A stretch of DNA of 64,000 bases from Tetradesmus obliquus. Lineage: Eukaryota; Chlorophyta; Chlorophyceae; Sphaeropleales; Scenedesmaceae. Where the stretch lies: contig CP126197.1 in assembly GCA_030272155.1 (NCBI GenBank), positions 496,001 through 560,000 on the forward strand, in the 5' to 3' direction. The notes below the pieces were generated by a model, which was not told the origin of the DNA, searched no databases, and saw only the letters and a list, made by a program, of their open reading frames with translations. Both the position numbers and the translations under genes were made by a program. Below are positions 361 through 64,000 of the stretch, in pieces (within the stretch, counting starts at the first letter, position 1; every line of letters begins with the position of its first letter).

Positions 361-3353
361 GCACGCCTCTGCAGCCGCAGCAGCAGCAGCAGGTGCCGCC
401 GCTGCTGAGCAGGGACGATGATGGCAACTTTGAGGTGGACCGCAGCGCCATTGAGAACTTCCTGCGGCCGCCTGCAGAGGAGCTGCCAGAGGACATCGAG
501 GTGCGGATTGTGATGGTATCTTTATATCCTGTTTTGTTATAGCACACTGTTTGACCACTATACTCTGGGCGCCTGAGGCTGCATTGTGCTTGACTGGCTG
601 CGCAGCAGCGTTATGTGCCTCAGCATCAGCAAAGGTAAAGCCAGGGCTGCAGCTCGTCAGATGTTTGCAGCAACTTTGAGGTGGACCGCAGCGCGATTGA
701 AAACTTCCTGCGGCCACTTGCAGAGGAGCTGCCAGAGGACATCGAGGTGCGGCATGTTATGTTTATGTCCTTGTGCTGTTGTGTTGCGTTATAACACGCT
801 GGTTGATCGCCATACTTCTGGGGCCAGAGGCTGCACTGTGCTTAGGAATAGGCTGCGCAGCAGCGTGGTGACCATCAGCAAGCTGCCGCGCCCGGACATG
901 CCCATCTGGAGGAGCTGCGTGTTTTTTGCTGGATGTGCGCCTCTTACGCTGGCGACTTTCAGCAGATGCTTGTCTTGTTATATGTAATCCATTGCAGGTG
1001 CCGATGTGGGACCACTTGGAGGAGCTGTGCAATGTGCGTTTGTTGCTAGCCTGTTCACAGGATCCGACGCTCCCATCTGCTGTGCCACTCTTGCTGTGCC
1101 TGCAGATGCCCATCTGGGACCACCTTGAGGAGCTGCGTGAGCGCGTGCTGGTGGCGCTGCTGGCAGCAGGCATCGCCATCGGCGGCTGCTTCTGCTTCAG
1201 CAAGGAGCTGGTGCTGTTCCTGGAGGCGCCCGTGGCTGATGCAGGCGTGCGCTTCCTGCAGCTGTCTCCTGGAGAGTTTTTCTTCACCACCTTCAAGGTG
1301 AGCGTGATCTCGGTTTGCAGGGCTTATAGTTTAGGTGTAGGTTTGGCAGCGGCGGCATCAGAAGCGGCAGCAGCGGCAGCAGAGGCAGTTGCAGCAGCAG
1401 TTGTTTGGTGTGCTGCTTCTGCTTCAGCAAGGAGCTGGTGCTGTTCCTGGAGGCGCCTGTGGCAGACGCGGGCGTGCGCTTCCTGCAGCTGTCGCCCGGG
1501 GAGTTCTTCTTCTCGACCTTCAAGGTGAGCGTGATCTGGGTCTGCAGGGCTTATAGTATAGGTGTAAGATAGGCAGCAGCGGCATCAGAAGTGGCAGCAG
1601 CGGCAGCAGAGGCAGTTGCAGCAGCAGTTGTTTGGTGTGCTGCTTCTGCTTCAGCAAGGAGCTGGTGCTGTTGCTGGAGGCGCCTGTTGCAGACGCGGGC
1701 GTGCGCTTCCGCAGCTGTCTCCTGAGGAGTTCTTTTTCACAACGTTCAAGGTGAGCAGCAGCAGCAGCGGCAGGATGCTTCGTGGCAACACCGGCAGCCG
1801 CGTAGAGTGGCACAGCGGCAGTCTTGCTGCAGTTCTAGCAGCTGTCAGTGCAGCGGCACTGCTGATGTTAGCTGTTGTTAGCACGGATGGCTGCTTGATG
1901 TCGTTGCTGCTACATCAATGCAGCATGTGTGGCTATGTGTGCCTCCGCTCACACCTCCTGTTATGCACGTCGGCCCTGCAGGATGCCGGCTACAGCGGGC
2001 TGCTGCTGTCAGCCCCCACAGTGCTGTACGAAATCATTTCCTACGTGGTGCCACATGTAACATCAAGTATCCTGCTGCGCTGGACTGTCCTTTTGCATAC
2101 AGGTTGCCGGGTACTCCGGTTTGCTGCTGTCCGCCCCCACAGTGCTGTACGAGATCATCGCGTACGTGGTGCCTGGCCTGACCAAGGCTGAGCGCAAGTT
2201 CCTGGCGCCCATTGTGTTTGGCTCCAGCATCCTCTTCTACATTGGGTAAGCATAAGCAGGCTGCGCGAACCGTGGTGGTGTGGTATTCAAGCTTTTTGTG
2301 CTCGCTATGCATGCTGTGCCGTGCTTGAGCATGCTGGTGCTGCCACTGCTGCTGTTCGTTAACGAAATCGGCAGCCTGCTGTCCAGCTGCGAAAGCCTTC
2401 CCGCCTCTCGTGCTCATCCGTACTGCTGCCGCTGCTGCTGCTGCTGCTTCTGCTGCTGCTCACATGTACAGGCTGCTGTTCAGCTACGAGATCCTCACGC
2501 CTGCCGCGCTCAACTTCTTTGTGAGCTACGCGGAGGGCGCTGTGGAGAGCCTGTGGTCCATCGACCAGTACTTCCAGTTCGTGCTGGTGCTCATGCTCTC
2601 CACGGGGCTGTCTTTCCAGGTGCGGCTCAACAGAACATGGGTGTAAGCCACAGAAACCTGCAGTGCAGTTATACCGCCTCACCCTGCCGCCCTGGTCTCT
2701 GTAATGGCACTGCAGCTCTGCAGCATCCACAGCTCGTCGGGCCAGCTAATTGAACTACTGTACTTGCCGGCAGTGCTCTCTGGTGCATGCCCTGCTGCCC
2801 CACTACCCCACTGTTTGAATTCGCCTTTTGTCGGCATCACATAACCTGCAACAACTGCCCTGTCCAGGTGCCCATCATCCAGATCATGCTGGGCCAGCTG
2901 GGCATCGTGAACTCCACGCAGATGTTCAGCCTGTGGCGCTACGTGGTGGTGGGATCCACAGTGGTGGCGGCGGTGCTCACACCCAGCACAGACCCCTTCA
3001 CACAGGTGAGATGGGCAGATGAACGGCAGGGAAGCTGCGGCCAATTTTTTTAACACACTACATTATGCAGCTGTAGCCAGGCACCACTCCACCTTCGGAA
3101 TCTGCCGTGCTCACTCACTCCACAGACCATCACGCAGGTAATACTGCAGAGCAAGTAGCAGGGAAGCTACTCCACGGCTCCATATCCGTAGCCACTTGCA
3201 ATCATTGCCATGTATCTGCCGTGCTGACCCTTCTGCACGTATGTCCTCTTCCCCGCAGGCGCTGCTGGCCATCCCACTGGTGGGGCTGTACATGGGCGGG
3301 GCAGGCGTGGTGAGGTTCATCGAGCAGGGCAAGGCCAAGGCGGCGCCGGCGTG
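361..3353 (+). CDS. TATC: Chloroplast Sec-independent translocase subunit TatC (5' partial)
   Basis: TatC is the multi-spanning thylakoid membrane receptor of the twin-arginine (cpTat) pathway, which binds RR signal peptides with Hcf106 and recruits Tha4. Readable exons are 361-500, 1106-1297, 2103-2245, 2472-2619, 2868-3005 and 3259-3353 (TGA at 3351). The last five join in phase. They carry family signatures: [14 protein letters not shown], the [12 protein letters not shown] segment, [32 protein letters not shown], and TPSTDP near the C-terminus. The exon 361-500 is an acidic pre-domain stretch ([11 protein letters not shown]...EELPEDIE) of the kind that precedes TatC in plastid precursors. 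A segment at 863-905 reads [15 protein letters not shown] and must belong between these exons, but the join is unresolved because it lies in duplicated exon pieces. The start codon and transit peptide were not found and are probably upstream of the window. The identification is firm; the N-terminal structure is not. Confidence 0.93.
668..3138 (+). repeat. Partial tandem copies of TatC exons inside its introns
   Basis: Surplus exon pieces lie beside the intact exons. 671-746 repeats the 3' part of exon 361-500 with its donor. About 895-930 (with 10 bases lost) and 998-1038 repeat the 5' start of exon 1106-1297. 1412-1524 and 1640-1750 repeat its 3' half and donor; these two are units of about 227 bp that include the following intron, and the second has lost two bases and is frameshifted. 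1982-2050 repeats the 5' part of exon 2103-2245. 3105-3138 is a worn copy of the 3' end of exon 2868-3005. The intact copies alone give a normal TatC. Confidence 0.9.
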
Positions 3354-3793
3354 AAGTTGGCTGTGAAGTTAGTGGGAAGCTTGACGTGAAGTTTGGCAAG
3401 AGCTAGGGGATTGCTCAGTGTGCGCTTGTTGGAGTGGACAGGTGCGTGTGGAATGGAGTGTAGTTTAACCATTGTTGACCAACAACCGATGGGTTGGCAG
3501 TCTTTGCATGCAGGATGCTGGCTTGCCTCCTGGGCATGCGATGGTGCTGAGCACGCCTGCTGTTGCTGGCGCTGTGCCACATGCATTGTGGGAGGTTGAA
3601 ACCCGGCCGTGCGTGCTGTGGTGGGTATTGGCACAGGGTTGCAGGGTGCGTATCATCGTGGCCCAAGCTGGTTCAACCAGGTTGCAGGTGGCTGCTGTGC
3701 ATGCTGTGGGGCCGACTGCGCAGACTTGGTGGTGTACAGTGGCATGCAACTCAATGCGCTGCATCCTCATGTCCCAATGTAGTATACGCAAAA

Positions 3794-3891
3794 ACCGTCG
3801 TTGGCAGTCGGCTGTTGATGCCAGTCATTATGTCGCATATTGACCGTCGTTGGCAGTCGGCTGTCGATGCCAGTCATTCTGTCGCATATTC
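3794..3891. repeat. 49-bp direct tandem duplication
   Basis: Two near-identical units (3794-3842 and 3843-3891) start with ACCGTCGTTGGCAGTCGGCT and differ at a few bases. They lie in non-coding DNA downstream of TatC. Confidence 0.85.
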
Positions 3892-5063: not shown

Positions 5064-5230
5064 GTAAATATGTGCAGGTTCTCAGCTGCCACTGGTCACT
5101 GGCCACGCAGATCTGCTGTCTAGACAAGTCCACCAGCGCTGCCAGCAACGCTTGCAGCAAGCTGGCTTGAAAGCTGATACATAATCTCACTGACTGTCTG
5201 CCTATCGCACGTGCCTCACGCTGCCAACAG

Positions 5231-7690: not shown

Positions 7691-8639
7691 ATGTAGAACA
7701 GCACCGCAGCAGCCTATCATCTTGCTGCAGGGTTGTGGCCAGGCTGCTGGGCCGGCAGTGTTTATAATAAGCGCTGCTGTGTCACGGTGGCGACCAGCTG
7801 GTAGTCTACAAGATCGCATCTTTGATCTATTTGTTGAGGAGTGTGGGTTTGTTGTGAGGTGGCCAACAAAGCATCCTGCACAACCAAGGTAGCATTTGGC
7901 ACAGGTGCTGCTGTTGCCGGCAGTCCTGGTTTTACATCCAACTCGGTGGGTGTCTGAATTCGTTCTATACATCCAAGGTTTTTGTGATTTCACCAACTTG
8001 CACTCAGGAGGAGCAAGCACTTCTTGGCAGATGCAGACATCGTGAGGTGCTGTATTTCATGCAATATATTGCAGTATATACTGCCAGCAGTGCCATAACA
8101 AGAGGCACCAGTGCGTTCACATCATAGAGCGAGGCCTATTGAGAAGAATAGGTAAGTAGAGTGTTTTCTTCGCTGGCAGTCGTACACCTAATTCTACATG
8201 TCATAACAACGAACACCATCAAAACAATGCTCCAGCAGCCCATAAGGCGCATTCAGCTTCCAACTGTCAATGCCATCTGGCAGAGCAGCAACAATGCACA
8301 CGATGTCAGAGCAGTACGTCATCACGGCAGCCACCAGCAGACCAACCATCAAAGGGAATGTGGACAGTGAGTAAGGACGGAATGCACAGGCTGTCTAGGA
8401 CATCATAAGCTGCCTGACGGCACCCTTGCATTGATGCTGGATACAAACCTCACCAGGGGCACGGCAGCAGCAACCATCACTATTGCACCCTACACTGAGT
8501 CCGCACACAGCACGCACACCCATGCGCATTCAAACAAACTAGCCATCCGCACGCTGTCATGTCTGGTAACAGAGCAGCACAACACATTGTGGGTCACTTC
8601 AACAGCAATAGGCTGTGCCGCTTGCAGCAGCGCATGACA
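7691..8639. other. Intergenic region
   Basis: I see no gene. The stretch lies between the convergent LRR-PGG gene and the 3' end of the transporter. Confidence 0.5.
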
Positions 8640-8965
8640 GCCCGCCTGCTGGCTCCCGTGCATTGGTTCTGGGCACCAGCTCCACCAGCGGCGCACAGCA
8701 GCAACTTCCATAGATCACTGCAGTAACACTGCACTTTGCTAACAGCCACAGCAGGGGCAAATCATAGGCCGCCCGCCGGCTCCCATGCATTGATCCGCGG
8801 CACCAGCCGCACCAGCGAGACAGCACAGCCACGGCACAGTTCAAAAGGATATTTGCAATAAGACAGATGCCACCAGCCTGACCGGGTCCCACATCACATG
8901 CCCCCAGCCGGCTCCCTGGCATTGATCTCTGGCACCAGCCGCACCAGCGGCGCCACAGCAGCAGC
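8640..8965 (-). repeat. Three copies of the transporter's last exon end, beyond the stop
   Basis: Copies at about 8885-8965, 8765-8818 and 8640-8702 each repeat the 3' end of exon 9230-9015 (residues LVRLVPRINAREPAGGL and following bases), with substitutions. They lie downstream of the true stop at 9015, so they are 3'-flanking duplications. Confidence 0.88.
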
Positions 8966-9014
8966 TGCCATAGATCACTGAAGTTCTTTGCTTGACAGCC
9001 ACAACATGGCCAAA

Positions 9015-12000
9015 TCATAGACCGCCGGCTGGCTCCCTTGCATTGATGCGTGGCACCAGCCGCACCAGCGGCGCAGCAGCAGCCACCGCCAGCGCCGCCC
9101 ACAGCAGCAGCAGCACGCCGGCCGCCAGTGCGGGTGGAGGCAGCTTGAGCGCCAGTGCGCTGATGGCCATTGGGCTTAAGCCGCCAAAGATGCTCATGGC
9201 AAGGTTGTGAGCTAGATTGTAGCCGGATGTCTGCAAGCAGCGCAGGCATACACACATGCAGAGGTGCAGGAAGGTTTTGAAAGTGCCAGTGCGCTGATGG
9301 CCATGGGGCTGAGGCCGCCAAACTTGCTCATGGCCATAACATGGGCCAGGTTGTAGCCAGACGTCTGCGGGTGATGCAGATCGAAGCGCAAAAGTAAGCA
9401 ACGGGAGGAAAAAGCACGTCAATGCCTGTGTGTGGAGCACCTACAGTACAGTAACGCAATGTAAACAATCGTCGGCAGGAGGAGGCGGAAAGCACTCCCA
9501 CATCACACCCGTGAAAACATCAACAGCATCAAAGCAGACAATTCACAAACATGCAACAGCAGCACTGTAGGCAGGCAGCTTGAACAGAAAGCTCATGTGC
9601 AGCAATCTGGCGTAGCAGCAGCAAGTAACAATACAGCTGTAAGCTACCGGTGCATCATTGGAGCCGCGCTGCAGCGCCGCTCACCCGCACCCCTGCAGGG
9701 AACACTTGTGAGCCTACACTGGCCATGAGGCCTCCCATAGAGCCGCAGACCAACACCGCCATTCTGATGTACCGACATTATGTAAGCTACACTGCCATGC
9801 CGCTCACCCGCACTCCAGCTGGGAACACTTGTGGCTCAATGCTGGTCATCAGGGCCCCCGTGGAGCCGCACAGCAGCACACACACCAGCACTCACCCAAG
9901 AACCTGATGGTGCATACCAAAAGCCCCACGCCCAAGCTTTACGAACAGTCCAGCAGCACCAATTGGCCGCATGTATGCGGCACAGGCCACAAGCGCTCAC
10001 CCGCACTCCAGCTGGAAACACCTGTGGCCCAATGCTCGTCAGCAGGCCGCCCATGGAGCCGCACAGCAGCCCACACACCAGCATGGGGGCTACCCAGGTG
10101 GCTGCTACAGAGCCGGTGGCACACCACAGCAGCAGCGGTGTGCAGATGGCTGCACCCACGGCGGTCAAGCCAACCATAGCCCACACTGCAGCAGCAGCAG
10201 CAAACAGCAGAAGCAGGTGTGTAAGTGGTGGTGGATGCCGGTGGCAGCGAGCCGGTGGAGCACCACAGCAGCAGCGGGGTGCAGATGGCTGCGCCGACGG
10301 CTGTGAGGCCCACCATTGCCCACACTGCAGCAGCAAACAGTGCACAGCGGCAGCTGATGTGCCGGTGAGGCAGGTACACAATGCATGCCGGTTATACATG
10401 CAGCTGAGCTGCAGTAGCTACTGTTACAAGATGCTACAACAGCAAACGGCCTGCTTCCCTGTAGCGCATGCTGCTGCACCCTGCCTTACCTTTGGGTGTT
10501 GTGCCGTCGCAGATGAAGTGCCCTGTGGCCACCACTGCGCCCGCAAACAGCACCATGGCCGCCAGGATGGGCCACAGCGTGTCTTGTGGAGGCAGGTGGC
10601 TGATGGCACGCATGTAGTTCGGCAGCCTGCGAACATTCAGCAGCAGAGAACATGATCTTGAGGTCACTTTGAAGTGCAGGTTGACTTAGTGTTGAGAATG
10701 GCATGTCTTGGGGAGGCAGGTGGCTGATGGCACGCATGTAGTTGGGCAGCCTGCAGAAAAACAGCAGCAAACAACTGGCGTTAGTTTGATTTGCAATAAG
10801 GCAACAGCACCATGGCCGCCAGGATGGGCCACAGCGTGTCCTGGGGAGGCAGGTGGCTGATGACACGCATGTAGTTGGGCAGCCTGCAAAGCACAGCAGA
10901 AGCATCGTTTTGGGTTACTCCCAAGTGCAAAATGACATTGGGAACGGTGTGTCCTGGGGCGGCAGGTGGGATGTGGCGCGCATGTAGTTGGGCAGCCTGC
11001 AGGACGCAGCAAGATAGACAGACCATACTGAATTGCACAGAATGTGGGACATGTCGTTGGTGTGCCACGGACACACCGTACGCAGTACTGCTGCATAACA
11101 AGCGCATGAAGCTTGCAGCTGTGATGCATCGAGGTCCGTCCCTGTACAATAAACAAAATCCAAACTCCTCTCACCATGAAAAGAAGGTGTAGAAAGTAGC
11201 GCCGTAGCACGCCTCAAAGCAGAACAGCAGCAGCACCTGCCGCCAGTGACTGCGCGCCAACACCAGCAATGGCACGTGGTGCTTTATGATTGCAGCTTGG
11301 TGCTGCAGCTCTGCTGCATAAGCCTCCTCACAGCTCAACACTGCTGTATCCAAGTCAGATGTGTGCTGCGTACCCTGCTGTGTGTGCTGCGCCTGCTTTG
11401 CGGGTGCTGCTCCAGTGTAGGATTGCGGCACGTGCAGCAGCACCTCTGCAGGCAGCAGCAGTGCAGCAGAGCGTGGCAGCACAATGTAATAAATGAGGAG
11501 GTGCGGAGGAGGACGCAAGCTGGCAGGTGCACTGAACGCTTACAATGGTGAACGCAAGGGTGCTAGCATGTGCACAACCGGCCCAGCAGGTGCAATCACA
11601 GTAACAAGCGGGGTGCGTGCATGCTGAACAATTGAACGTTGCTCAAGCCAGCTGTCAACCACACTCTAACTTGACGCTGCATAGCCACACATGCACACCT
11701 GTCGACTGGATGTATGATCCGGGTGCTGCTGCTTTTGTCAGCGACAGCGACCGCATCCCAGATAGGCTGCCATTGCCGTTGCCAGCACCAGCGCTGCTGC
11801 TGCAATGGCGCTGGGCAGCCTTGCACTGCTCCTGCAGGCTTGCAGTGTTCGTTGCGCTCTTGGCTGCTGCAGCAGTACCTGCGCAGACACGTGACACAGT
11901 GCACATAAATGTGAAGACGGTCGCGAAGACGGCCAGAAAATCCTCATGCTGCAGGCCATTGCCGCTACCCTTGACGCATCAAGCAGAGCCGCGTGGCTTT

Positions 12001-14724
12001 GGCAAAGGCGTGCTTACTGCAGAACGTGCCTCACCTTACCCAACATCAGACATGCGCTTGCTGTCCTGCTGGTCCTCCTCGGGTGTCACAATCACCTCAG
12101 TCAGCAGCCGCGAGAGCTGCCGGCTGCTCAGCACGCTGCACGCCGGGTGGTGCTGCGGTGACGCTGAACGGTGACACCCTATCATGCCGGTGACACCCCA
12201 GTTTCTGTTGGTGTCACCCGCTCACTACATGCTACTGCAACCCTGCCTCTATGGCGTTGCCTCACCTGACTCAACATCAGGCGCACATTTGCTGTCCTTC
12301 TGGTCTTCTGGTGTCACCACCACCTCAGTGAGCGCCTCCAGCCGCCGCGACAACTGCCGGCTGCCTGCCGGTGACGCTGTGGTGATACTGTGCCGGTGAC
12401 ACCCTAGTATGCCGGTGACACCCCAGCTTCTGTTGGTGTCATCCGCTCGCTACATGCTACTGAAACCCTGCCTCTATGGCGTCGCCTCACCTGACTCAAC
12501 ATCAGGCGCGCATTTGCTGTCCTTCTGGTCTTCTGTTGTCACCACCACCTCAGTGAGCGCCTCCAGCCGCCGCGACAACTGCCGGCTGCTCAACACACTG
12601 CCTGCCGGTGACGCTGCGGTGACACTGTGCCGGTGACATCCTAATATGCTGGCGACACCAGTTTCTACACGTGTCATCTGCACTGGCGACACTTGATACT
12701 ACTGTAACCCTGCCGCAACACTGTCGCCTCACCTGACTCAACATCAGACACACACTTGCCGTCCTGGTCGCATTCTGGTGTCACCACCACCTCAGTGAGC
12801 GCCTCCAGCCGCCGTGACAGCTGCCGGCTGCTCAGCACACTAGCTGCCGGTGACACTAGTGACGCTGCGGTGACACTGTGCCGCGCTGCTGCTGAGGCCT
12901 GCCGGGTGAAGCTGGCCGCAGCCCTGCTGGCTGCCTTGCTGGCCACTAGCTGCATCGTCAGTTGCTGCAGGCAGCAACAAGATGCACAGATGCCATTCGG
13001 GGTCGGGGGAGGGAGAGGCAAGGTCAGGTGGCTATTTTACATCATGCTGCCTGCTCTGGTAAGTGCAAATATTGCTGCTAGTGTGCCTGTGTGAAGTCTT
13101 GTGGCCGCATACGTTCCTGATGCAATTTACCTGCTTAGACACCAGGAAGTCATGTGGCTCTGGCATGTGCATGCACAAGCTACAGAACTGCCACAACACG
13201 TGTTAAACAATAGGCAGTTAGACAACGTTGCCAAAACATTGTGTCAGCGCTACTCACCTGCTTAGACACCAGGAAGTCATGTGGCTCTGGCATGTGCATG
13301 CGCATGACCAGCGCAACGGGCGCAAAGAATGCCGTCAGCAGGAACGGCACGCGCCAGCCCCACTGCAGCAGCTGCGCGGGCGTGCAAGCGTACATCACCA
13401 CCAAACATGCGATCAGGCCAAACGCGATCTGCAACGGTACACAGCAGCAGCGCAGGGTAAGACGTTTGATCAGTTTCAGGCGGAAGTTCCTGGAACAGCA
13501 AAACAGCAAAGCAGCTTGCTGGCTTGCCTGCTGTCCATGCTGACAAATTTTGCATTAGATACACAATGAACTGCCCAGCGTGCGGACCGGGCACCATCAA
13601 ACCCAAATATGCAGCAGCACTTACCCCTGGCGCGATGGCTGCCTGCCCCAATGACGCGATGGCGCCCTTGCGGTGTGCCGGCGCTGTCTCAAACAAGTAG
13701 ACAATGGCAGAGCCAAACTGTGGGACACGGCAGCAGCAGCAGCAGCAGCAGCAGCATGCACCGGCAGCAGTTGATCCAAGTCGACAGCGCATAGGAATGC
13801 ATCAGGACAGCAGCTTTGCAAGTTGTCTGGGGGGTGAGCAAGTTGACAGCTGGGTCCTGCGCTGACCAATGACGCTTCGTGCACTCTGCACGGAGCATAC
13901 ATGTGCCCTGCTGACACCAAAAAACCAATAACCAATCGGTAATCAGCAACTGGTGCTGCTGCTACTAGCTGCGCTACATGTCTCAAGTCTCACACACACC
14001 TCCCCGCCCACTGCCAGCCCTTGCACCTGCAGCAGCACACATAAACATGTCAACGACAGTGTCTCTGGCATCTGACAGAGCTGAAAGTGGAAAGCAACCA
14101 CCAAAACATGCAGGGTTGGACCACTGCACTTGCACAGCGCTGGTGTTGCCATGGTGCTGTGCTGCTGTTTGTAATGCACGCTTCGCGAGCTGCGCATCTG
14201 GCCTCACCAGGCGCAGGATGGCCATGAGCACTGGCGCTGCCATGCAGCTGCACAGGGCTGTAAACACTGCTAAACAGAAAGACAAAAGAGCACGAAGCAC
14301 ACAGCTGGCTAGGACTTGAGCCTCACCAGGCGCAGGATGGCCATGAGCACTGGCGCTGCGATGCCTATCTGGTGGTAGGTGGGCAGGCAGCCAACAAGAA
14401 TGGTGGGCACCTGCGGCACGCAACAGGCAGATTCCACCACACAACACGCAGTAAATTATCAGTGATCAAAGGAAGTATTGGTACTGAACAACAATGTGCT
14501 GGCATGAGGATTTTGGGCACCTGCGGCACGCAGCAGGCAACATCCCGGCAGAAGAGAACCAGGCAGTCTTGTGAGGTTTTCACGCACATGTGCTAGCATG
14601 CAGCAGCAGCACGCTGGTGAGCTTGATGTGCAGATGCAATGCAAATTGACTGTGAGGGGCGCCGTGCGCTAACCAGCATTGCCCTGTGGTCCAATGGTGT
14701 TTCATGCCCTGCCAAGGCCTGACT

Positions 14725-33389: not shown

Positions 33390-33428
<39 letters not shown>

Positions 33429-34809: not shown

Positions 34810-35056
34810 CTGGTAGTAATGCTGCAAGCAGCAGGCCTTGGGGATCTGAATATGCTGCAGCATGCACGCTGTGCACCCATCATAACATGGAGCGCTACTG
34901 CAGCATCTGCTGTGCATTGCTTCTTCCGCCGCTGCAAAACTGCCCTACTGTTGCTGCTGCTGTTGCTGGAGGCAGCAATGTCATAGATGGCCAACTAAAC
35001 GATGCATGCTGGCAGGCTGCCGACTGGACCTCTGAGCCTGTGGACATAACGGGGGC

Positions 35057-35088
<32 letters not shown>

Positions 35089-35286
35089 AGGCAACCTGTC
35101 ATAGACGGCCAGCTGGATGATGCATGCTGGCAAGCTGCTGACTGGACCTCTGAGTTCGTGGACATAATGGGGGCACTGCTGCTGCTACTGCTGCTGCTGC
35201 AGGCAGCCCTGTAATAGATGGCCAACTGGATGATGCATGCTGGCAGGCCAGCGAATGGACCTCTGAATTTCTTGACATAGTGCGGA

Positions 35287-35325
<39 letters not shown>

Positions 35326-40514: not shown

Positions 40515-41522
40515 TCATCCCAGCTTGCTGCCGGCCAGCAGCGCCCCCAGTATCACCACTGGGCCCAGCACCACCCCCAGTGCTACAACTGCAGCCTTTG
40601 CTGCTTCCTCCTGGTCCGCTGCGCGCTCCTCCTCGCTCGCAACATACATGCGGTTGCGGTCGGCAGCGCGCCTGCAGGCAAAAACACAACAAAACAACCA
40701 CAAACACGTCAGCGCATGCGCAAGAGTGGTGCAGCGCCTGCTGGGCTTTGCCTGAAGTTGCGTGTGATGCAGCCTGTTACAGGATGCAGCAGCTGGCAGC
40801 TGAGACAGCGAGTGAACATGTGCATCCTTAGCTGGGTGCTGAGGCTGGCAGCCGCCACAACAAAATGCCAGAACCTGAGAAGTAGCATGCCGCAACAAGC
40901 ACTCGAGGCACGCGTCCTTTGTAACCGAGTAGCCAGTCCTGTTTTTCTTTTGATTACACAAAAAAAGTTTACACAAAAGCAATGACCAAAGCAGCATACA
41001 GTACCCCGAGCCGCACCTGAAGTACTTGAGGTACTCGTTGACCGCATAGCTGATGTCATAGTTGTCATGTTTTTTGGAAATAACATACTACTAACAACAT
41101 ACTTTGAAAGCAGATGACACGCCCGGCCCCACCTGAAGTACTTGAGGTACTCGTCCTTCTTGACCGCGTAGCTGATAGTGTCTGCCTTCAGGAAGCTGGC
41201 CGCCTGGAAGCCAAACACCAGCGCCTTGGCCTTGCGGGACACCTCGCTTGTTGGATGCCCCCCAATACTGCAGCACAACACAGCACAGCACACCGCAAGC
41301 TAGTCAGCCAGTGATTACGGCAGTCAGCCAAACACTAGCGCCTTGGCCTTGCTGGACACCTCGCTTGTTGGATGCCCTCGGATGCTGCAGTCAGACAATA
41401 AAAAATGCAGCCGGCCAGTACTTCAGTGAAGATGGCAGAAAGAAAATCTGGAAGATCAGCCAAAGATCAGCGCCTTGGCCTTGCGGGACACCTCGGATGT
41501 AGGATGCCCTCGGATACTGCAG
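40278..41522 (-). repeat. Stutter copies around the last exons of the plastid-type gene
   Basis: About 40390-40278 repeats the end of terminal exon 40671-40515 (ALLAGSKLG and stop) beyond the stop codon. 41060-41011 is a 3' copy of exon 41267-41133 with a loss inside it. 41394-41335 and 41522-41468 are 5' copies of the same exon (GHPTSEVS..KAKAL). Confidence 0.9.
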
Positions 41523-41805
41523 CACGGCAGTGAGCCAGTCAGTCAACATCAGCAGTCAATGATGCAGTCGGTCAATAAGGCAGCCAAAGATTAGCATGTC
41601 GTAGCACCCCAATTCAGGTTCCATCACATCATACCAACTTCAGGTCCCGTCAAAATTAAACAATCAAATTCAAAACACAGAAACTCACCGCTTGTACAGG
41701 GCTTCTGCCTGGCGGGCATTTCCAAGCGTATCGTAGCACACCGCTGCCTGCAGCGTTGACATGCCGCCCAGCCTGCTCTTCAGCGGCACCTTGGCACGCA
41801 CCTGT

Positions 41806-50800: not shown

Positions 50801-53356
50801 ATCCACACCCGCTGCTCTGCCACCTGCCCAACCGCCACATACATAACATCCACGCAGGCGCAGAGCATCGAGCGCAGCCGCTACTGCGACTGTGAAACTG
50901 GCTCAGGCAGCTACGCCTGCCAAACCCGCCTGCCAGCCCTACCCCTCAACACTGCAGCAAACACCTACTCCCCCCCCTTTGGCCACACTTGCTCACTTGC
51001 TGTCCCAAACATGCTTGCCTTCTCACCCATGCTTGCTGACCTGCTCATCCACACCCGCTGCTCTGCCACCTGCCCAACCGCCGCATACATAACATCCACG
51101 CAGGCGCAGAGCATCGAGCGCAGCCGCTACTGCGACTGTGAAACTGGCTCAGGCAGCTACGCCTGCCAGACGCGCCTGCCAGCCCTGCCGCTCAACACAG
51201 CCACCACAGTAACCGTACCCCCCGGGCAGTGGGGCATCTGGGAAGTGACACTTCCGGGCCTTATCAAAGACAGCAGAGGAGGGCCTGGGGCACCTCCTAG
51301 GGATGCTGTGGCAGCAGCAGCAGCAGGGCTTGGGCCGGGGCTGGTTGGCAATGAGGTGCTGCTGGTGACTGCGGAGCGGGTTGACCGCGAGCAGGGCTTT
51401 GGCGGCAACCCGCTGCTGTTTTTGAAGCCGTTTATGACAAAGGTGGGCTTAAGGACTTGGGGTTTAGGGGCTGGGTGGGTCTTAAGGGTTGAAAGATTCG
51501 GGGCCGGGGCTTGTCGGGAATGAGGTGCTGCTGGTGACTGCTGAGAGGGTCGACAGGGATCAGGGCTTTGGCGGCAACCCGCTGCTGTTTTTGAAGCCGT
51601 TTATGACAAAGGTGGGCTTAAGGACTTGAGGTTTAGGGGTTGGGGTGGATGAAAGGGTTTTAGGCTTGGGGCCTGGGCTGGTAGGGAGCGAGGTGCTGCT
51701 GGTGACTGCGGAGCGCGTGGACAGGGATCAGGGCTTTGGTGGCAACCGGCTGCTATTTTTGAAGCCATTTATGACAAAGGTGGGTCAAGGACTTGCGGTT
51801 TAGGTGTTATGGTGGGCTTCATGGGTTTAAGACTTGGGGCCGGGGCTTGTTGGAATGAGGTGCTGCTGGTGACTGCTGAGCGGGTTGACAGGGATCAGGG
51901 CTTTGGCGGCAACCCGCTGCTGTTCCTTAAACCCTTCCATGACAAAGGTGGGTTTGAGGGTTGCTTTGGTCCCAAGGGTTTAAGATTTGGGGCTTGGGCT
52001 GGTGGGGAATGAGGTGCTTGTGGTGACGGCTGAGCGGGTTGACAGGGAGCAGGGCTTTGGCGGCAACCCGCTGCTGTTCCTTAAACCCTTCATGACAAAG
52101 GTGGGTTAGGGCTGTGGTTTAGGGTTATGTGGCTGTCACAGCTCAAAGCGGACATGGTGCAGTACACCTCATCATCTGTCAGGTTCTTTTAATACATGCG
52201 GTATGTTTTGTTGTGTCCTGCAGGACCACAATCAGCCCAGCCATGGTGTGCTGGACACAGACGTGGTGCAGCACGCCGCATCACATGACCCGTTGTTAGC
52301 TAACATATGTTATAATGTCTTGCAGGACCACAACGAGCCCAGCCTTGACGCCCTGGACACCGATGTGGTGCAGTACGCTGATCTGCGCAGCTTCCAGCTG
52401 CAGCTCAACAGGCACTACCTGCTGCAGGTGAGGCTCCTGCGGCCTTGCGTTTTGGTGTGGTATGATAAAAAGGAGTTTGAGGGTTATGCAGGCTGGTTGC
52501 GCGCCGAGACCAATGCTGCAGACCAGTATAGCATGTGCACCAACCAGAGGGTGTCTGCGGATCTGTTGTTCTGTGTAGTATCATTGCTGCAGGGGCACGT
52601 TTGATGCCGCTGCAGGTGCCTCGGCGAGCTGCTGTAGCATTGCTTGAGTATTTTCAGCTGCTGGCACTCACGTGCTGAACTTCCTTCCTGCCTGTTCTCT
52701 GTGTTGCCGCTGGTTCTGCCTTGCTGCCTTCTGTTTCATCGCCACATCCTTCGCACCCGCAGCGCCTGCCGGTGCGGGACGCACTGAGCCCTTCAGGCGC
52801 CTCCGGCTACAGCATGCCGCGCCGCTGGTATGTCGCCATCTACAACTCCAATGCGACCCGTCTCTCCCAGCCAGCCCGCGTGGAGCTTAACGTGCAGTAC
52901 AGAGACCTAAACCGCTCTCCCCTCGTCTGCCCCTTCGACTGCAGCGGTTCAGGCCGCTGCGTGGACCCTAAACCCGCCAGCTCAGCACTCATGCCGTTAG
53001 ATCTGGGATCGAACGGGCCGTCAGATGCGAGCATTGTAACAGCGATTGGGCCGATGCAGGACCAGAGTCCGGTGGATGCGGGGTTCATGTGCGTGTGTAA
53101 CCCGGGTTACGCCGGGCTGACCTGCGAGGGCCGAATGCAGAATGTAACAGTAGGCAGCGGGCAGCAGCGGCTCGGGCCCGAGGTTTTGCAGCCCGGCGGC
53201 TGGTTCTTCTACGTTGTTACAGTTGACTCAGGGTTTAACCCGCAGCAGCATGACCTGGGCATTCAGTGGACCATTGGGGAGCCTTCGAGCCCTCCTAGCA
53301 ACTACAGCGGGGCCTTCATTTCGTTTGACCAGGGGCCGCTGCCAAGGTGAGGCAAT

Positions 53357-57010: not shown

Positions 57011-58736
57011 ATGGCGCGGCAGCGGCGATGCAGGCTTGTAACATCGCCTGCGATGTCTTCTGCCACAGTGCTGCGAGCGGTGCTGCTGGCAGCATGCCTG
57101 CTCTATGCGGCACTCGGAGAAACTGTCCAGCTGAATGAATCAAATGTGGAGGGCAGTATCATGCCTCAGGAGCTTCAATCCCCGCCCTCTGCGGGGACCG
57201 AGCTCTGCGATTATGACCAGGCTGCATCAGCCCAGCAGCAGCAGGAGCAGCAGCAGCTTTATGTGGTAGCCTTGGATGGTAGCCCAGCAAGCAGCAGCAC
57301 TGATACTGCAACCTCCAGCAATGAAGCCAGCCAGCCAGCAGAGCCATCAAGCTCAGCTACAGACAGCTTGCCAAGCAGCAGTAACACAGCAGCAGGAGCA
57401 GGGCCTGATCCAGCCAGCTGGCAGCTTGGCAGCTTCCCTGCACCCCCGCCACCCCCTTTACAAGAACCACAAGCAGCAGCAGCCTTCCAAGGACCTTCCA
57501 ATACATTAGCAGCTTCTGCGACAGCACGTCAAGCAGCAGCTGCTAACCCTGCGGCGAATGCAGCGGCTGTGTCTGCTGTGCCGAACATGGGGGTGGCTCC
57601 TGCAGGCAGCCGGGTGCCTGGGCGCTACATTGTGTTCTTCCGCAGCAATGTCAGCAGCACTCAGCAGGGCATTGACAGGTGCGCTGTGACTGCTGGTGGT
57701 GAGACTGCGAGTGACTGCAACCAGCTTGCAATCATGCAGTAGTACTAATGTAAAGGCAGGAGTAGCACAGCAGCAATGGCCCTGTTCCTGTCTCGCATCT
57801 CAACCACATGATTGCAAATGTGATGATACATGACAACCTCTTACCTTCAAGTGCTGCTGATGTCTTGCTGCTGTTTTAATCAGGCTGCAGCACCATGTAT
57901 CTGGGAGGCTTGCGCGTGCTGCAGCTGCAGCCAGCAGCACAGGAGCCAGCGTCGGCATTGCTTCTGTTGCCACCGCAGCAGTAGGAGCAGCATCTGCACC
58001 AGCAATCCCTTTCCACATCAAAGGCAAGCTTGGCAGTGACGCAGACAGCAGCACTGTGGGAGTGGCGTCAGTGGGCATTGCAGCCGTTGCAAGCCGCACT
58101 GGCAGCAGCAGCAGCAGCAGGCGGAGGCCGAAGGGACTGGTGGTTGAGACGCCGGCTGGTGTGCAGGCGCGGGCGCTGTTCAGAGCTCTGCGCAGTGCCA
58201 GTGACGTCGAAAGGGTGGTGCAGGATCGGGTAATTTCCATCGCACAAAGTGAGTGCCGGGCAACTGTCACGTTGCTTAATCTCTAGTCAGCATGTTCTTC
58301 AGCTAGCTGTCTGCCTGATTCACTGAAGGGTGGTGCAGGGTCGCGATTCTCCATCGCACAAAGTGAGTGCAGTGACGCAATGCCTGCCAGCACAATATAG
58401 CTTAGGGGCTGCCGTTACAGCAAGTTTCCAGTCAAAATTGAGAAGGGGCTGCTCTGCTGCGCAGTTCACACTGACCACTGCCGCTGCAAGAAGCTGAACA
58501 GCACACACAACACAAAGGGCAAAAGTGTAGACCTTGCCGATCATATTGTCTTGCTGCTGCTGCTGCTGCTGCTGCTGCTGACCCGTATGCACGCCGCCTG
58601 CACACAGCCCGCTGCATCCCGCCCAGCTCCCTGGCAGGCATCTCATCTGCTGGCCCCAGGCTGCAACGGGCCGGCTGCAAAGCCAACGGCACACAGCACA
58701 TAGAGCGAGGGCGCTTGACTCATTAATCAACTGGTC

Positions 58737-58769
<33 letters not shown>

Positions 58770-58910
58770 ACCCGCACACAGCCCGCTGCATCCCGCCCAG
58801 CTCCCTGGCAGGCATCTCATCTGCTGGCCCCAGGCTGCAATGGGCCGGCTGCAAAGCAAAACGGCACACAGCACATAGAGCGAGGGCGCTAGACTCATCA
58901 ATAAATTGTC

Positions 58911-58949: not shown

Positions 58950-60089
58950 ATTCACACACAGCCCGCTGCATCCCGCCCAGCTCCCTGGCAGGCATCTCAT
59001 CTGCCGGCCCCAGGCTGCAGTGGGCCGGCTGCAAAGCAAACGGCACCAGGATCTTCTGGTTTGGCGAGCGCTGCGGAGCAAACCTGGCGAGGACTCGCTG
59101 GGTGGGCATGTATGCAGTCAACACCACCACAAATGAAATGATACCGGGCTGTTTGCAGTACCGGAAGAGTCCTGAGAGTGACCCTTGGAACGTGGCACAC
59201 ATGGGTGCATGCGGCGTGGCGCCAACTGTCGCTCCAGGTCTGCCGATTAGTGTGTGTCCAGATGCAGATGCAGCAGGCTGTATCTCTCCTGCAAGGCTAG
59301 GGTTGCTGCGGCTAACCCTAAATAAGGCAGTCAGCTGCAACGGCAACAGCAGCAGCCAGCTGGTGCTGCAGGGTGCCAGGTGCGGCCCGGGTTTAGGGTT
59401 TGTGCAGTGGTCGTCCGTGCTGATGCCGGACGGTGCGGGCTGCTCATTCAACCGGTCACCAACAGACAGGAAGTTTAACAACGACTGGCTAGGCACCTGT
59501 GGAGTGACACCACGCCACATCACACTACCTGGTGTGGTCTGTACCACCATCCAAGCAGAGTCAGGCGTCAACGAATTCAAGTCAGGAGCTTTCCTACAGC
59601 GGCCCCCGCCTCCGCCAATGGTGAGATCACCACCGCCTCCCAGACCTCCGCCACCGCCGCCATCGCCCAAACCGCCGCCGCCGCCACCGCCGTCGCCAAA
59701 ACCGCCGCCGCCACCACCCCCGCCGTCACCGCCGCCGCCATCGCCGCCACCGCCGTCTCCACCGCCGTCACCACCGCCAAGTGCTGGTAACATCCCATCA
59801 GGTGGGTGCTGTCAAAATGTTCGATCTCAGGTCTTGGTCAAAGTGCTGGTACACGAGACTGCTGCTGCTGCTGCACCCGATGCAAGCACGTGCTCATCTG
59901 AAACTAGCTGTCTTGCACTAACATGCTGCTGCTACTGCTGCTGCTGCTGCTGCTGCTGCTACCCTGCAGCTGACTTGGCGGTGAACGAGTTCATCCCCTT
60001 AGGCATCCAGTGCATTGCGACAGTCTACAAGAGCAGGCATGTCCCGTGCCCCGTATGTGAATCGATTACAAAGCAACTCACAAACCTCT

Positions 60090-60130
<41 letters not shown>

Positions 60131-62962
60131 GTCAATCTTGCAGCTGACCTGGCGGTCAACGAGTTCATCCCCTTGGGAATTCAGCGCATTGAGGCAGTCT
60201 ACAAGAGCAGGCTACCAGACATGGCCCGGGCCCCGTGTGTCACCGATTCACACAGCAACTCACAAACCTGCTGCTGCTGCTGCTGCTGCTGTTTCCCGTA
60301 TACTGCAGCTGATCTGGCGGTCAACGAGTTCATACCCCTGGGCATTCAGCGCATCGAGGCAGTCTACAAGAGCAGGCTGCCAGACATGGCCCGAGCCCCA
60401 GTGCCAGGCGTGGTGGTGGCTGTGGTTGATACTGGGGTTGATGCCAGCCACCCGGACCTGAATGTGGTGGGCGGCATGAACTTTGTGGGTGACGAGCCGC
60501 AGCTGACTTACGCGAACGACACCAACGGCCACGGCACGCACGTCTCAGGTGAGAGCGGGTTGTGACAGGCCAGATTCCAGCTGTTGTTCACGTGTTGTCC
60601 AGCTTTCAGCTGCCGGCTTGTGGGCTACATTCTTGGTGGGTGTTAGTGCCATTGTGCAGTTTTGCTTCGCCAGTGAGCAGGGCTGTTGTGCAGCATACTG
60701 CCAGTGCCGGTGCATGTGCCGTCGAATCCTGAGACCCCAACCTCCATGCTTGGCTAAACCCCAACCTCCATGCTTGGCTGAACCCCAACCTCCATGCTTT
60801 GGCTGAACCCCAACCTTCATGCTTTGCTGAACCCCAAACTCCATGCTTGGCTGAACTCTCACAGGCACAATCGGCGCCAGAAATCAAGGCAAAGGCATAG
60901 TGGGGGTGGCCCCAGGAATCGGCATCTACGCGCTACGTGTGCTGCATGCGGACGGCAACGGACTGTTGTCGGACCTGCTGCGCGCGTACGACCATCTCGT
61001 CGCGAACGCTCGGCAGCTGGGCATTCGAGTTGTAAACTTAAGCTTGTCTGGAGCTGGCCAGACGACCGATGAGGATTGCCGATATGTGACGGAGCTGGTG
61101 CGGCAAGGGATCACTGTGGTCACTGCAGCAGGTGCGGGCAGGGCTGCAGTTACAACTGCTGGAGATCTAGCCAGCCGTGCTGTGTTATTATTGTAGTGCG
61201 TGACTGAGCTGGTGCGGCAGGGTGTCACTGTGGTCACTGCAGCAGGTGCGGGCAGGGCGACACTTACACCTGCTGAAGTGTTAGCCAACTGTGCTGTGTT
61301 ACTGTTGTTTTGCGCGACAGAGCTGGTGTAGCAGGGGATCACGGTGGTCATTGCAGCAGGTGCTGGCAAATCAGCAGCAAGCGGTAGGCAGGCTGGGGTG
61401 CGGGGCGACAGGGGATGTTCAGTTCAGGGCAAACCAACCCGCACCACCCGCCTGCCTCATCTCTACTGCTGCTTTTACATTTTTGTGCACCTGCGGCTGC
61501 ACCTGTACAGGCAACAGTGGCGTCTCAGCGCTGGGTGTGGTGCCGGCAGCATGTCCCGGTGCTCTGGTAGTCACTGCCGTGAGTGACATGGATGGCGATG
61601 GCAACTGCCTTGCCCACAAGCACCACCCGCCTGCCTCATTACCCCTGCTTGTGCGTCCCCTCTCCCTCTGCTGCTGCACTTGCACCTGCAACAGTACTTG
61701 CAACACCGGCGTCTCAGCGCTGGGTGTGGTGCCGGCAGCTTGCCCCGGTGCCCCTGGTAGCTGGCATTCTGGCAAACACCACCCACCTGCCTCAGCACCT
61801 CCTGCTCTTGTGTCACCTGTGCCTGTGCTGCTGCACCTCCACCCCCGCAGGCAACACTGGTGTATCAGCACTGGGTGTGGTGCCGGCAGCGTGTCCCGGC
61901 GCACTGGTTGTCACTGCTGTGAGTGATATGGATGGAGTGGGAGGGTCCAGTGACTACCCTCCCTCCTGGAGCAACTTTGTGCCGCTGCCTGACACCGGGA
62001 ACTTCACATCGCGGATGCTGGCTGCACCAGGTGGGCGCATTGTCATATAACATATCATATAACATGTCATATGACACCTAATCCGGTCACAATGTGGTTA
62101 CACACGTGCATCCGTTTGAAAGTGCCTTCAGGTTGCTGGTTGGGCATGCTTGCTGCTTGTCAGCAGAAAAAACATTGGACGATCAGGCACAGCTGGGCAA
62201 GTGCCCATATTGCATGCCAACCCAGCAGGCAACTGGAGTTTAGCATCAAATACCACAGGAAAATCAATTCAAACGCTGCATCTGCTGGTCCTGGCGTGCT
62301 GACCTGCAGGCGATGACGTGACCAGCACCTGGCCGCTGAACCAGCCTGCCTTTGGGGGATATGCCAAGATGAAGGGCACCAGCATGGTGAGGCTACTCAG
62401 TTGTATATATTGTTTTGATGTTGTTGTCAATAGTTTGAATATTGTTGTTGATATGTTTGGACGTTCAAGATGAAGGGCACCAGCATAGTGAGGCTTGAGT
62501 TTACCACACACTCAAGGCGCTGCAGCAGCGTAAGCACCAGAAAGCACCGTGCTTTGTGCATTTGACATCGGTATAACTGTTGTTCTGTCGCGCTGATGTG
62601 TTCCCACATGCACCAGAAAGAATAATGCATTGTGCAGCTTATGTTAACATTTCTGCTGTACTGCCCTGCTGCTGTGCTCCCGCCTGCACCATCCACAGGC
62701 TTGTCCCCACATCAGCGGCATCGCTGCGCTGTGCTACGCATCCGGCGTCTGCAAGAGCAGCAGCAGCAGTGAGCTGGAAAAGGTGGTGGCCCCTGCAGTG
62801 GCCTACAACCAGGCTGTCAGCTTCTACCGTTATAACAATGACCCGCTTACAAACCCCTTGCCAGACAAGTACTATGGCTATATGGCATGGGGGCGGCAGT
62901 TTTGGGGGCAGGAGCAGGGCGACTGGTACCCCGCAGGACTGTCGCTGCCATCTCTGCAGTGA
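57011..62962 (+). CDS. Secreted subtilisin-like serine protease with Pro-rich segment
   Basis: Eight exons (57011-57678, 57884-58248, 58962-59801, 60309-60548, 60865-61131, 61851-62030, 62310-62386, 62699-62962) sum to 2901 nt, giving 966 residues; all phases close. A signal peptide ([20 protein letters not shown]) and Ser/Ala-rich spacer precede an I9-type propeptide (VPGRYIVFF ... [14 protein letters not shown]). Next come a Cys-rich module ([21 protein letters not shown]) and a (SPPPP)n hydroxyproline-type rod (59606-59780). The S8 catalytic domain follows: Asp in VAVVDTGVD (about 665), His in NGHGTHVSG (about 699), the AAGN oxyanion motif completed across an intron (Asn about 795), and Ser in GTSMACPHISG (about 878). 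The end (YYGYMAWG) is as in other algal subtilases. Volvocine hatching and sporangial-wall enzymes are subtilases with Pro-rich parts, so cell-wall proteolysis is a reasonable guess. The end of exon 3 may be 59786 instead. Confidence 0.9.
58327..58870 (+). repeat. Stutter copies around exons 2 and 3 of the subtilase
   Basis: 58327-58365 repeats the 3' end of exon 57884-58248 with its donor. About 58590-58700 and 58775-58870 are two 5' copies of exon 58962-59801 ([18 protein letters not shown]...), each preceded by a CTG tract. The period is about 187 bp. Confidence 0.92.
58913..58950. repeat. (CTG)n tract before the subtilase exon 3 acceptor
   Basis: About 12 CTG units. Shorter equivalents stand before the two upstream copies (58555-58580 and 58738-58769). 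Confidence 0.9.
59965..60240 (+). repeat. Two 5' copies of the catalytic-Asp exon
   Basis: Units at about 59965-60050 and 60138-60240 repeat the acceptor and [14 protein letters not shown] start of exon 60309-60548. Both stop before the catalytic Asp. CTG tracts precede each copy. Confidence 0.92.
60732..60857. repeat. Minisatellite of 24-25 bp, five units
   Basis: Unit ACCCCAACCTCCATGCTTGG plus CTGA, five imperfect copies, in the intron just before exon 60865-61131. Confidence 0.92.
61199..61765 (+). repeat. Stutter copies around subtilase exons 5 and 6
   Basis: 61199-61250 and 61318-61362 are 3' copies of exon 60865-61131 ([15 protein letters not shown]); the second has an in-frame TAG. 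About 61508-61605 and 61700-61765 are 5' copies of exon 61851-62030 ([14 protein letters not shown]). Confidence 0.92.
62464..62500 (+). repeat. 3' copy of the catalytic-Ser exon
   Basis: It repeats KMKGTSI and the GTGAGG donor from the end of exon 62310-62386, with Met changed to Ile. Confidence 0.85.
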
Positions 62963-64000
62963 CATTGACTCGATATCTGAAATTTGGGTGACAGCTGGAA
63001 GCTAGGCGGCACCCTCCTGGCCTGTTGCTGCCATCTCTGCAGTGACAGCTGCAAGTTGAGTGGTACTCCGCAGGACTGTCACTGCCATCCTGGCAGTGAC
63101 ATTGACTTAAGGTTCGAAATCCAATTGACAGCTGGAAGCTAGGCTGGCCTGTTGCTGCCATCTCTGCAGTGACGGCTGCCAGCGTAGCAGCTAGTTGGTA
63201 CCCCTTTGGACTGTTGCTGCCATCCCTGCAGTGAAAGCTGCAAGCACGGTGGTTCGCCCGGCCTAGTGCTGCCATCTCTGCAGTGGCCGATGCCGGCTGT
63301 TTTGCAAGTAGCGGTTGCCGGCTTGTGTATTTCATGTGGAAGTACAGCAGATGGGCAGGATGGCGATAGCAGCAGTGCTGGTGTGTCCAGGCTCTGCAGG
63401 GGTTTAAGTGTCTGCTGCTTGTGCCCTGTGTGGCAGCCCTCCCTCTTGAGGGCATGCCGCAGTGAAGGATGCTGTGCTAAGCAGCGGCAGCAGCAGCAGC
63501 AAGGCAGAACAGATACTCTGCGAGTCACCCACGCAACAGCGGCTGTTCATGGTCAGCTGACCAGCAGCGAGCTTGATCAGGCAGAGGCGCCCCTTGATAA
63601 TTGCAATGTCTCGGTATGTTTCGATTTGTCTGGTCAGTAGTTGATGCGCTACTTGCAAGGAGCTTTCCTTTCTGACTCTCACATGCACATATGCACAGCT
63701 GACCATGCCATGTCCATGATGGACAGGTGAATGCCCACTGAACTCGAGTGTGTGCAGCACTGCGGCAGAGCTTGAAGCAAAGCTGATGATAGCTGCGATA
63801 CATACTGCGATCTCAGCTGTTGTGTGACAAGGCCGGAGCATGAAAAAACAGGGTGCATGCACTGGTGTGACCAGGTTGTGACCAGGGACCGACCATGAAT
63901 GGCGCTAGGGCGCTAAATCAGCAGAATTACTCATACTTCTATTTATGTTGAATCCCAACTCGATGCTGATCTCAGATATCCGAGCAATGAACGGAAGTTG
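62963..64000. other. 3' flank of the subtilase with repeated end-of-exon copies
   Basis: Up to about 63284 there are around five worn copies of the last codons of the subtilase (GL-LPSLQ and stop region), for example near 63021-63048, 63062-63098, 63148-63172, 63200-63235 and 63260-63284. No gene is seen in the remaining 700 bases. Confidence 0.7.

What the first reader, a model, noticed from the sequence alone, without database searches (positions are those of the whole stretch)
361..63284. Exon-edge stutter: most exon borders in seven host genes are tandemly duplicated
I count roughly 45-50 partial exon copies in introns and 3' flanks of TatC, the MHS transporter, the EGF-like, CBM9-like, plastid-type, EGF-RING and subtilase genes. 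They obey one rule: copies upstream of an exon carry its 5' part with the acceptor, and copies downstream carry its 3' part with the donor (or the stop). Each gene model closes in phase using a single intact copy. Tandem duplication of short segments (about 40-250 bp) that straddle an exon-intron border explains the geometry, but recurrence at so many borders is remarkable. Copies range from near-identical to worn, so the process seems continuous. Decoy splice sites may affect splicing. I know of no description of this.
Basis: partly seen in the sequence, partly recalled or inferred. Interest (0 to 1): 0.88.

Follow-up and report, generated by a model that had tools for sequence, protein, structure and literature searches.

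The report
Duplicated exon edges in algal introns
In this green-alga genome, short stretches that straddle the edge of a coding exon are copied over and over into the neighbouring intron or 3' flank, while the gene goes on using one intact copy; the pattern is real and widespread, and why it sits at coding edges is not yet explained.

Summary
In seven curated genes, 32 of 112 coding-exon edges carry 56 matches to their own border in the flanking non-coding DNA, so "most borders" is too strong (29%). The left/right rule holds. The TatC product omits every copy: a database protein from a contig too short for the gene matches the copy-free model. The pattern is genome-wide: in 344 kb, 137 of 182 local duplicate pairs touch a predicted exon edge, against 74±6 expected; 29 of 32 tandem arrays contain or adjoin one.

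Two features go beyond chance duplication plus survival. Arrays clear of coding sequence are rare. Copy spacing is quantised: few below 85 bp, a peak at 110–140, a second at 210–270.

Copies lie at two stop codons as well as splice sites, which argues against a splicing function. Exon changes are mostly silent; copies collect frameshifts and amino-acid changes. Best reading: recurrent duplication of about 90–260 bp across coding boundaries, leaving largely useless copies. In 11 of 25 adjacent units the intron part is homologous, as in plain tandem duplication; 14 share only exon plus splice site. The bias to coding edges stays open.

The parts
381..3354 (+). TatC gene, exons in the window: 381-500, 1106-1297, 2103-2245, 2472-2619, 2868-3005, 3259-3354 (stop 3352-3354)
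   Evidence: Pfam PF00902 over the whole profile; protein P0001 identical; stop
617..785 (+). copy of exon 381-500 with its donor
   Evidence: 78% identity
993..1060 (+). copy of 5' part of exon 1106-1297 with acceptor
1412..1756 (+). two tandem copies (unit 227 bp) of 3' part of exon 1106-1297 with donor
   Evidence: first unit: intron part homologous, z 21
1979..2052 (+). copy of 5' part of exon 2103-2245 with acceptor
   Evidence: 85% identity
2332..2416 (+). weak copy of 5' part of exon 2472-2619
   Evidence: 71% identity, z 3.9; not counted
8402..8970 (-). four matches to the CDS end (stop codon 9015-9017) of the MHS-type transporter, in the 3' flank
9263..9368 (-). copy of 5' part of exon 9015-9230
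9678..9890 (-). two copies of 3' part of exon 10001-10185 with donor
10229..10361 (-). copy of 5' part of exon 10001-10185 with acceptor
   Evidence: z 3.1
10701..11018 (-). three copies of 5' part of the exon starting at 10626, with acceptor
12028..12632 (-). three copies of 3' part of exon 12733-12964 with donor (units 225-242 bp)
   Evidence: z 11.5
13122..13177 (-). copy of 3' part of exon 13258-13428 with donor, 93% identical, intron not homologous
14201..14245 (-). copy of 3' part of exon 14327-14410 with donor, 98% identical, intron not homologous; the copy plus its spacer finds only itself and the exon in the genome
33070..33132 (-). copy of 3' part of exon 33180-33527 (EGF-like gene)
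34945..35294 (+). three tandem copies (unit about 118 bp) of 5' part of exon 35328-35532 (CBM9-like)
40276..40398 (-). copy of 3' part of exon 40557-40671 (plastid-type gene)
40897..41054 (-). two matches to the 3' part of exon 41133-41267 (one counted)
41326..41525 (-). two copies of 5' part of exon 41133-41267
42062..42173 (-). copy of 3' part of exon 42306-42461
42540..42649 (-). copy of 5' part of exon 42306-42461
43273..43379 (-). copy of 5' part of exon 42951-43108
   Evidence: acceptor not kept
49402..49476 (+). copy of 3' part of exon 48900-49205 (EGF-RING gene)
   Evidence: z 5.3
50182..50362 (+). two copies of 3' part of exon 49837-50086
   Evidence: z 6.3
50572..50955 (+). two copies (unit 246 bp) of 5' part of the exon ending at 51442
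51501..52124 (+). four tandem copies (unit about 168 bp) of 3' part of the exon ending at 51442
52203..52276 (+). copy of 5' part of exon 52326-52427
58326..58370 (+). copy of 3' part of exon 57925-58248 (subtilase gene)
58564..58860 (+). two copies of 5' part of exon 58962-59801
59929..60234 (+). two copies of 5' part of exon 60309-60548
   Evidence: z 8.0
61132..61368 (+). two copies (unit 114 bp) of 3' part of the exon ending at 61131
61484..61758 (+). two copies of 5' part of exon 61851-62030
62466..62495 (+). copy of 3' part of exon 62310-62386, 97% identical
63008..63234 (+). matches to the CDS end (stop codon 62960-62962) in the 3' flank

Best explanation
Short local duplications of about 90-260 bp that overlap a coding boundary (splice site or stop codon) arise again and again in this genome. 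One copy stays joined to the gene and is used. The other is removed with the intron or lies beyond the stop, so the protein does not change. Copies then drift with little constraint while the exon stays under purifying selection, so copies of all ages accumulate and lengthen introns. Shown: the geometry, the edge excess in a 344-kb sample, omission of the copies from the TatC product, constraint on the exon branch and disruption of a third of the copies examined. Inferred: that those with homologous intron arose as plain tandem duplications and that the rest are older ones whose intron part was lost or whose exon part was refreshed by gene conversion. Not explained by this alone: the rarity of arrays clear of coding sequence and the roughly 120-bp spacing quantum.
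For: Geometry and 56 copies at 32 of 112 edges. Whole unit including intron is homologous in 11 of 25 adjacent pairs. Exon-internal duplications are rare: 8 of 182 pairs against 45 expected, and the two arrays that lie mostly in predicted coding sequence have periods of 105 and 117 bp, multiples of three. Exon-only changes 37 silent to 16 replacing; copy-only changes 67 to 78 (18 multi-copy families). 11 of 34 examined copies carry frameshifting gaps, one of these also a stop; 23 are intact. The TatC product lacks the copies. Local duplicates occur in 16 of the first 20 sampled stretches across the contigs, and edge arrays in some of the later eight too.
Against: If duplication were blind, arrays clear of coding sequence should be about as common as edge arrays; I find 37 of 182 pairs versus 63.5+-6.3 expected, and by eye most of those 37 are copy-copy pairs or edges my gene finder missed. 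By tandem-repeat search 1 of 32 arrays with period 88 bp or more is clear of predicted coding sequence. Spacing below 85 bp is nearly absent (7 of 277 pairs). Pooled Ka/Ks between exon and copy is 0.23 (0.16-0.33, 34 copies) or 0.24 (0.16-0.37, 25 independent edges), and the silent share 0.54 (0.45-0.64) is above the 0.39-0.46 expected for freely decaying copies, so some copies keep their amino-acid sequence better than neutral decay predicts. 14 of 25 pairs show no significant intron homology, some with 95-98% exon identity.
Confidence: 0.5

Rival explanations
1. An edge-directed mutational process: duplication is initiated at or templated by coding sequence (for example repair that invades the only sequence conserved between homologs or sisters), with a characteristic step of about 120 bp.
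For: 95 of 109 local duplicate families touch a predicted coding edge (single-copy null 29.4+-4.4, which is low because a family has two or more copies); spacing peaks at 110-140 and 210-270 bp with few below 85; three young copies match 7-8 bases past the donor and then stop abruptly; two stop-codon edges are affected.
Against: I know of no mechanism that recognises coding edges; exon calls outside the seven curated genes come from an own gene finder that also calls copies exons; older non-coding arrays are harder to detect, which inflates the edge excess.
Confidence: 0.27
2. Copies come from diverged homologous chromosomes or strains: unequal exchange between haplotypes whose exons are conserved but whose introns are not. 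Copies are then silent-diverged at birth and only coding-edge events can be recognised.
For: Silent-biased exon-copy and copy-copy divergence (Ka/Ks 0.17 and 0.28); no significant intron homology in 14 of 25 pairs; 23 of 34 copies have intact frames.
Against: Arrays with four or more mutually diverged copies would need many haplotypes; TatC units 1 and 2 share 99 of 107 intron bases yet differ at 9 of 27 silent sites; no haplotype or relative data.
Confidence: 0.1
3. Maintained decoy splice sites with a function in splicing control.
For: GT or AG kept in 32 of 34 copies listed as splice-type; some copies keep amino acids.
Against: Copies also sit at two stop codons; edge distances show no reading-frame preference by eye; the TatC product skips the copies; slow drift alone would keep roughly 30 of 34 (my estimate).
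Confidence: 0.06
4. Assembly artefact.
For: Reads were not available; spacing near 120 bp is of the order of a short read.
Against: 17 contigs for 104.7 Mb, no N in the window; copies are mutually diverged, identity about 60-98%, and in register; a 2-kb segmental duplication in L026 carries the same copy pairs in both halves.
Confidence: 0.05

Closest known systems
[quoted passage not shown] PMC4974935, passages read)
   Same: Tandem duplication within a gene; in the potato case the duplicated segment crosses an intron-exon border, as here.
   Different: There the event creates a new intron and is a single case. Here, as far as tested (TatC), no new peptide is made and the extra copy is simply excluded; and it recurs at 32 of 112 edges in the window.
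Mutually exclusive exons from exon duplication (recalled; only a search listing seen, PMC6071210)
   Same: Tandem copies of exon sequence within introns.
   Different: Copies here are mostly partial with one border each, are not used in the TatC product, and a third of those examined are frame-broken.
Introner elements and transposon-borne introns (recalled)
   Same: Recurrent growth of intron sequence.
   Different: In the one case tested the copy with its spacer finds only itself and the exon in the genome; copies derive from the neighbouring exon, not from a family.
Minisatellite and microsatellite expansion
   Same: Tandem arrays; short-period arrays (10-40 bp) are common here.
   Different: Edge arrays have periods of about 88-260 bp, with few arrays at 41-87 bp outside coding sequence, and are tied to coding edges.

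Membership tests
Rogers-type intron gain by tandem duplication | Duplicated segment lies in an exon and contains AGGT, giving both splice sites of a new intron | tested here: not met
   In the cases looked at, copies lie inside longer introns with their own acceptor or donor and, where testable, intron sequence is part of the unit
Rogers-type intron gain by tandem duplication | Peptide unchanged because the extra unit is spliced out | tested here: met
   TatC only: product equals the copy-free model
Tandem duplication crossing an intron-exon border (potato RdRp type) | Unit contains contiguous intron and exon sequence | tested here: inconclusive
   Met in 11 of 25 adjacent pairs, no significant intron homology in 14
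Tandem duplication crossing an intron-exon border (potato RdRp type) | Absence of the copy in a close relative | not testable with these tools
   The tool states that this genome has no relatives held
Mutually exclusive exons | Each copy is a complete exon with both splice sites, in frame | tested here: not met
   Copies are one-sided apart from the copy of exon 381-500, which spans the exon; 11 of 34 carry frameshifting gaps, one also a stop
Introner or transposable element | Inserted sequence belongs to a dispersed family | tested here: not met
   One case tested: a 125-bp query finds only itself and the exon; the search skips simple repeats

The most novel reading that the evidence does not exclude
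A mutational process that specifically duplicates coding-edge segments in steps of about 120 bp, at splice sites and stop codons alike, continuously building introns and 3' flanks out of the neighbouring coding sequence.
Probability: 0.3. Interest if true: 0.85.

Novelty: new variant of a known kind. Interest (0 to 1): 0.62.

Why it matters
If it holds genome-wide, it is an unrecognised source of intron sequence. A published table gives Tetradesmus obliquus a mean intron of 462 bp against 230-302 bp in four other green algae (PMC5966456, passages), and edge duplication would be a candidate cause. It also warns that gene predictors will call the copies as exons: my own did so in TatC. The arrays date exon evolution locally and give a direct test of where small duplications arise and which survive.

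Tried and rejected
Rejected or demoted: (1) Copies as hidden coding exons: the first impression from TatC (differences almost only at third codon positions) weakened when polarised. One search gave copy-only changes of 63/59/74 by codon position but included poorly aligned ends, so it was redone with trimmed segments (41/34/70, silent/replacing 67/78). A residual excess of silent differences remains: significant when pooled, but only 3 of 25 independent edges are individually below 0.01. Part of the copy-only silent excess can come from copies born at different times. (2) Rogers-type intron gain: geometry does not fit, except that I first considered it around 62958-63232, which I then read as a stop-codon array. 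(3) Splice-site conservation in copies: 32 of 34 is not clearly above drift. (4) Introner-like insertion: the one case tested is single-copy. (5) A spacer of 77-81 bases seen in five short donor copies in the window did not hold in the larger sample. (6) Pfam scans of whole frames mostly found nothing; models were searched instead. (7) Literature: searches listed no description of recurrent exon-edge duplication that I could see; only open-licence papers are held and only passages of two were read.

Limits: one search failed part-way (process pool) and was rerun. The 34 copies and the 18 families were chosen by me, not drawn at random. The BLAST self-comparison may suppress repeats closer than about 50 bp; the tandem-repeat search does not have that limit and shows the same scarcity. 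Null placements treat predicted exons, including copies called as exons, as true edges, which makes the pair-level null conservative; the family-level null uses a single copy and is therefore low.
Full report
WHAT THE WINDOW IS. The window lies in a 104.66-Mb, 17-contig genome, has no N and is 51-62% G+C by 2-kb steps. The closest hit of its TatC that bears a species name is Scenedesmus sp. PABB004 at 89%. I infer a Scenedesmaceae alga; the species is not shown. Gene names: TatC, CBM9-like, subtilase and a KDZ transposase by Pfam, a RING domain in the EGF-RING gene, the transporter by weak Pfam matches below cut-off and by relatives named kgtP and shiA.

CHECKING THE OBSERVATION. I curated exons for the seven genes from an own gene finder and looked at the borders of 27 exons: most are consensus sites such as TGCAG and GTGAG; two copied edges are stop codons (9015-9017 and 62960-62962). 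Each edge was compared with its own non-coding flank, up to 1 kb or the next curated exon. 32 of 112 edges carry at least one match, 56 in all. Interior probes of 29 exons found nothing independent of an edge except one repeat-rich hit.

WHAT IS USED. The copy-free TatC model covers the whole Pfam TatC profile. A database protein of 339 aa, whose longest source contig is 1,921 bp, is identical to it over the full query. The exons span about 2.97 kb in the window, so I take that contig to be a transcript (inference). The TatC copies are absent from that product. The other six genes have no such proof; a transporter and a subtilase search found no protein above 63% identity.

BEYOND THE WINDOW. 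I took 28 further stretches of 10 kb, 344 kb with the window. Local duplicates covered 0-26.5% of the first 20 stretches (none in 4 of them by this measure) and 14.7% of the window. Of 182 pairs spaced 85-275 bp, 137 touch a predicted exon edge (null 73.6±6.0), 8 are exon-internal (null 44.8) and 37 neither (null 63.5); by eye most of the 37 are copy-copy pairs or edges my gene finder missed. Among pairs of at least 85% identity, 23 of 27 touch an edge against 8-10 expected (264 kb). By family, 95 of 109 touch an edge, 3 are exonic and 11 neither; at least one of the 11 (window 58211-58370) is a curated edge. Of 32 tandem arrays with period 88 bp or more, by my reading 29 contain or adjoin a predicted coding edge, 2 lie mostly in predicted coding sequence (periods 105 and 117 bp) and 1 (444 bp) is clear of exons. 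In the KDZ-type transposase gene at 19.9-24.3 kb I saw no such pair.

SPACING. Among 277 pairs, 7 are spaced below 85 bp, 93 at 90-149, 21 at 150-199 and 57 at 210-269. Tandem-array periods show few arrays at 41-87 bp outside coding sequence (4-5) and the same two clusters. Copies at the two stop codons also include steps of 121-137 bp, so the quantum is not set by splicing alone. I have no explanation for it.

TYPE OF DUPLICATION. In 11 of 25 adjacent pairs the intron part of the unit is homologous as a tandem duplication requires; in 14 it is not significantly so. Some of the latter are very similar in the exon part (37 of 38, 46 of 47, 21 of 22 bases), and three stop 7-8 bases into the intron. 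Either the intron part of older tandem units was lost while gene conversion refreshed the exon part, or these are templated insertions of an exon edge. One such copy with its spacer finds only itself and the exon in the genome.

EVOLUTION OF COPIES. In 18 multi-copy families, changes unique to the exon are 37 silent and 16 replacing; changes unique to one copy are 67 and 78, two of them stops. Of 34 copies examined, 11 carry frameshifting gaps, one of these also a stop, and 23 are intact. This is what a functional exon and decaying copies should show. Against it: pooled Ka/Ks is 0.23 for 34 copies and 0.24 (0.16-0.37) for 25 independent edges, copy-to-copy 0.28 (0.20-0.38), where freely decaying copies should give about 0.40-0.53 (my arithmetic). 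The silent share, 0.54 (0.45-0.64), lies above the expected 0.39-0.46. The effect is uneven: subtilase 60144 (7 silent, 0 replacing), TatC 1524 and subtilase 61511 (9 and 1 each) against others that look neutral. I regard this as a probable but moderate anomaly.

READING. Blind duplication plus purifying selection explains why duplications inside exons are missing and why the left/right rule holds, since a tandem duplication across a border can do nothing else. It does not by itself explain why arrays clear of coding sequence are so rare, even among arrays whose intron part is still well preserved. Faster loss of recognisable similarity in introns accounts for part of it. The remainder points to a formation bias towards coding sequence, or to a process I have not identified. 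Function in splicing is unlikely given the stop-codon arrays.

COMPARISON. The nearest description I found is a single tandem duplication across an intron-exon border in a potato gene that created an intron (PMC4974935, passages). The recurrent, silent form was not found in the nine searches listed under Tried and rejected; only open-licence papers could be searched.

On re-reading the calls I mended: 11 of 25 (not 12) pairs with intron homology, 11 of 34 (not 12) broken copies, the stop-codon and TatC end coordinates, and the splice-type tally.

Noticed in passing
19876-24353: Gene with KDZ transposase and a sub-threshold CxC3 match (PF18758, PF18804), a likely mobile element, in which I saw no exon-edge copies.
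   Followed up: partly
5449-6347: About twelve 72-bp units coding for leucine-rich repeats (name recalled) in a mostly open frame: ordinary protein repeats.
   Followed up: partly
43142-43259: 19-bp minisatellite, about six copies, 100% matches, in a predicted intron.
   Followed up: no
32464-32731: 105-bp tandem repeat inside a predicted coding exon, 95% matches: same size class as the edge arrays.
   Followed up: partly
L026 1076-3042 and 5810-7746: Two-kb segmental duplication, 98% identical, carrying the same copy pairs in both halves; exons elsewhere in L026 resemble UDP-glucose 4-epimerase (recalled; the one exon searched gave no Pfam match).
   Followed up: partly
L011 2042-2903: Tandem pair with 444-bp unit, 86% matches, clear of predicted exons: the only such array of period 88 bp or more in the 344 kb.
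   Followed up: no
window, many places: Introns and exons are rich in CAG/CTG runs, which may supply microhomology for duplication.
   Followed up: no
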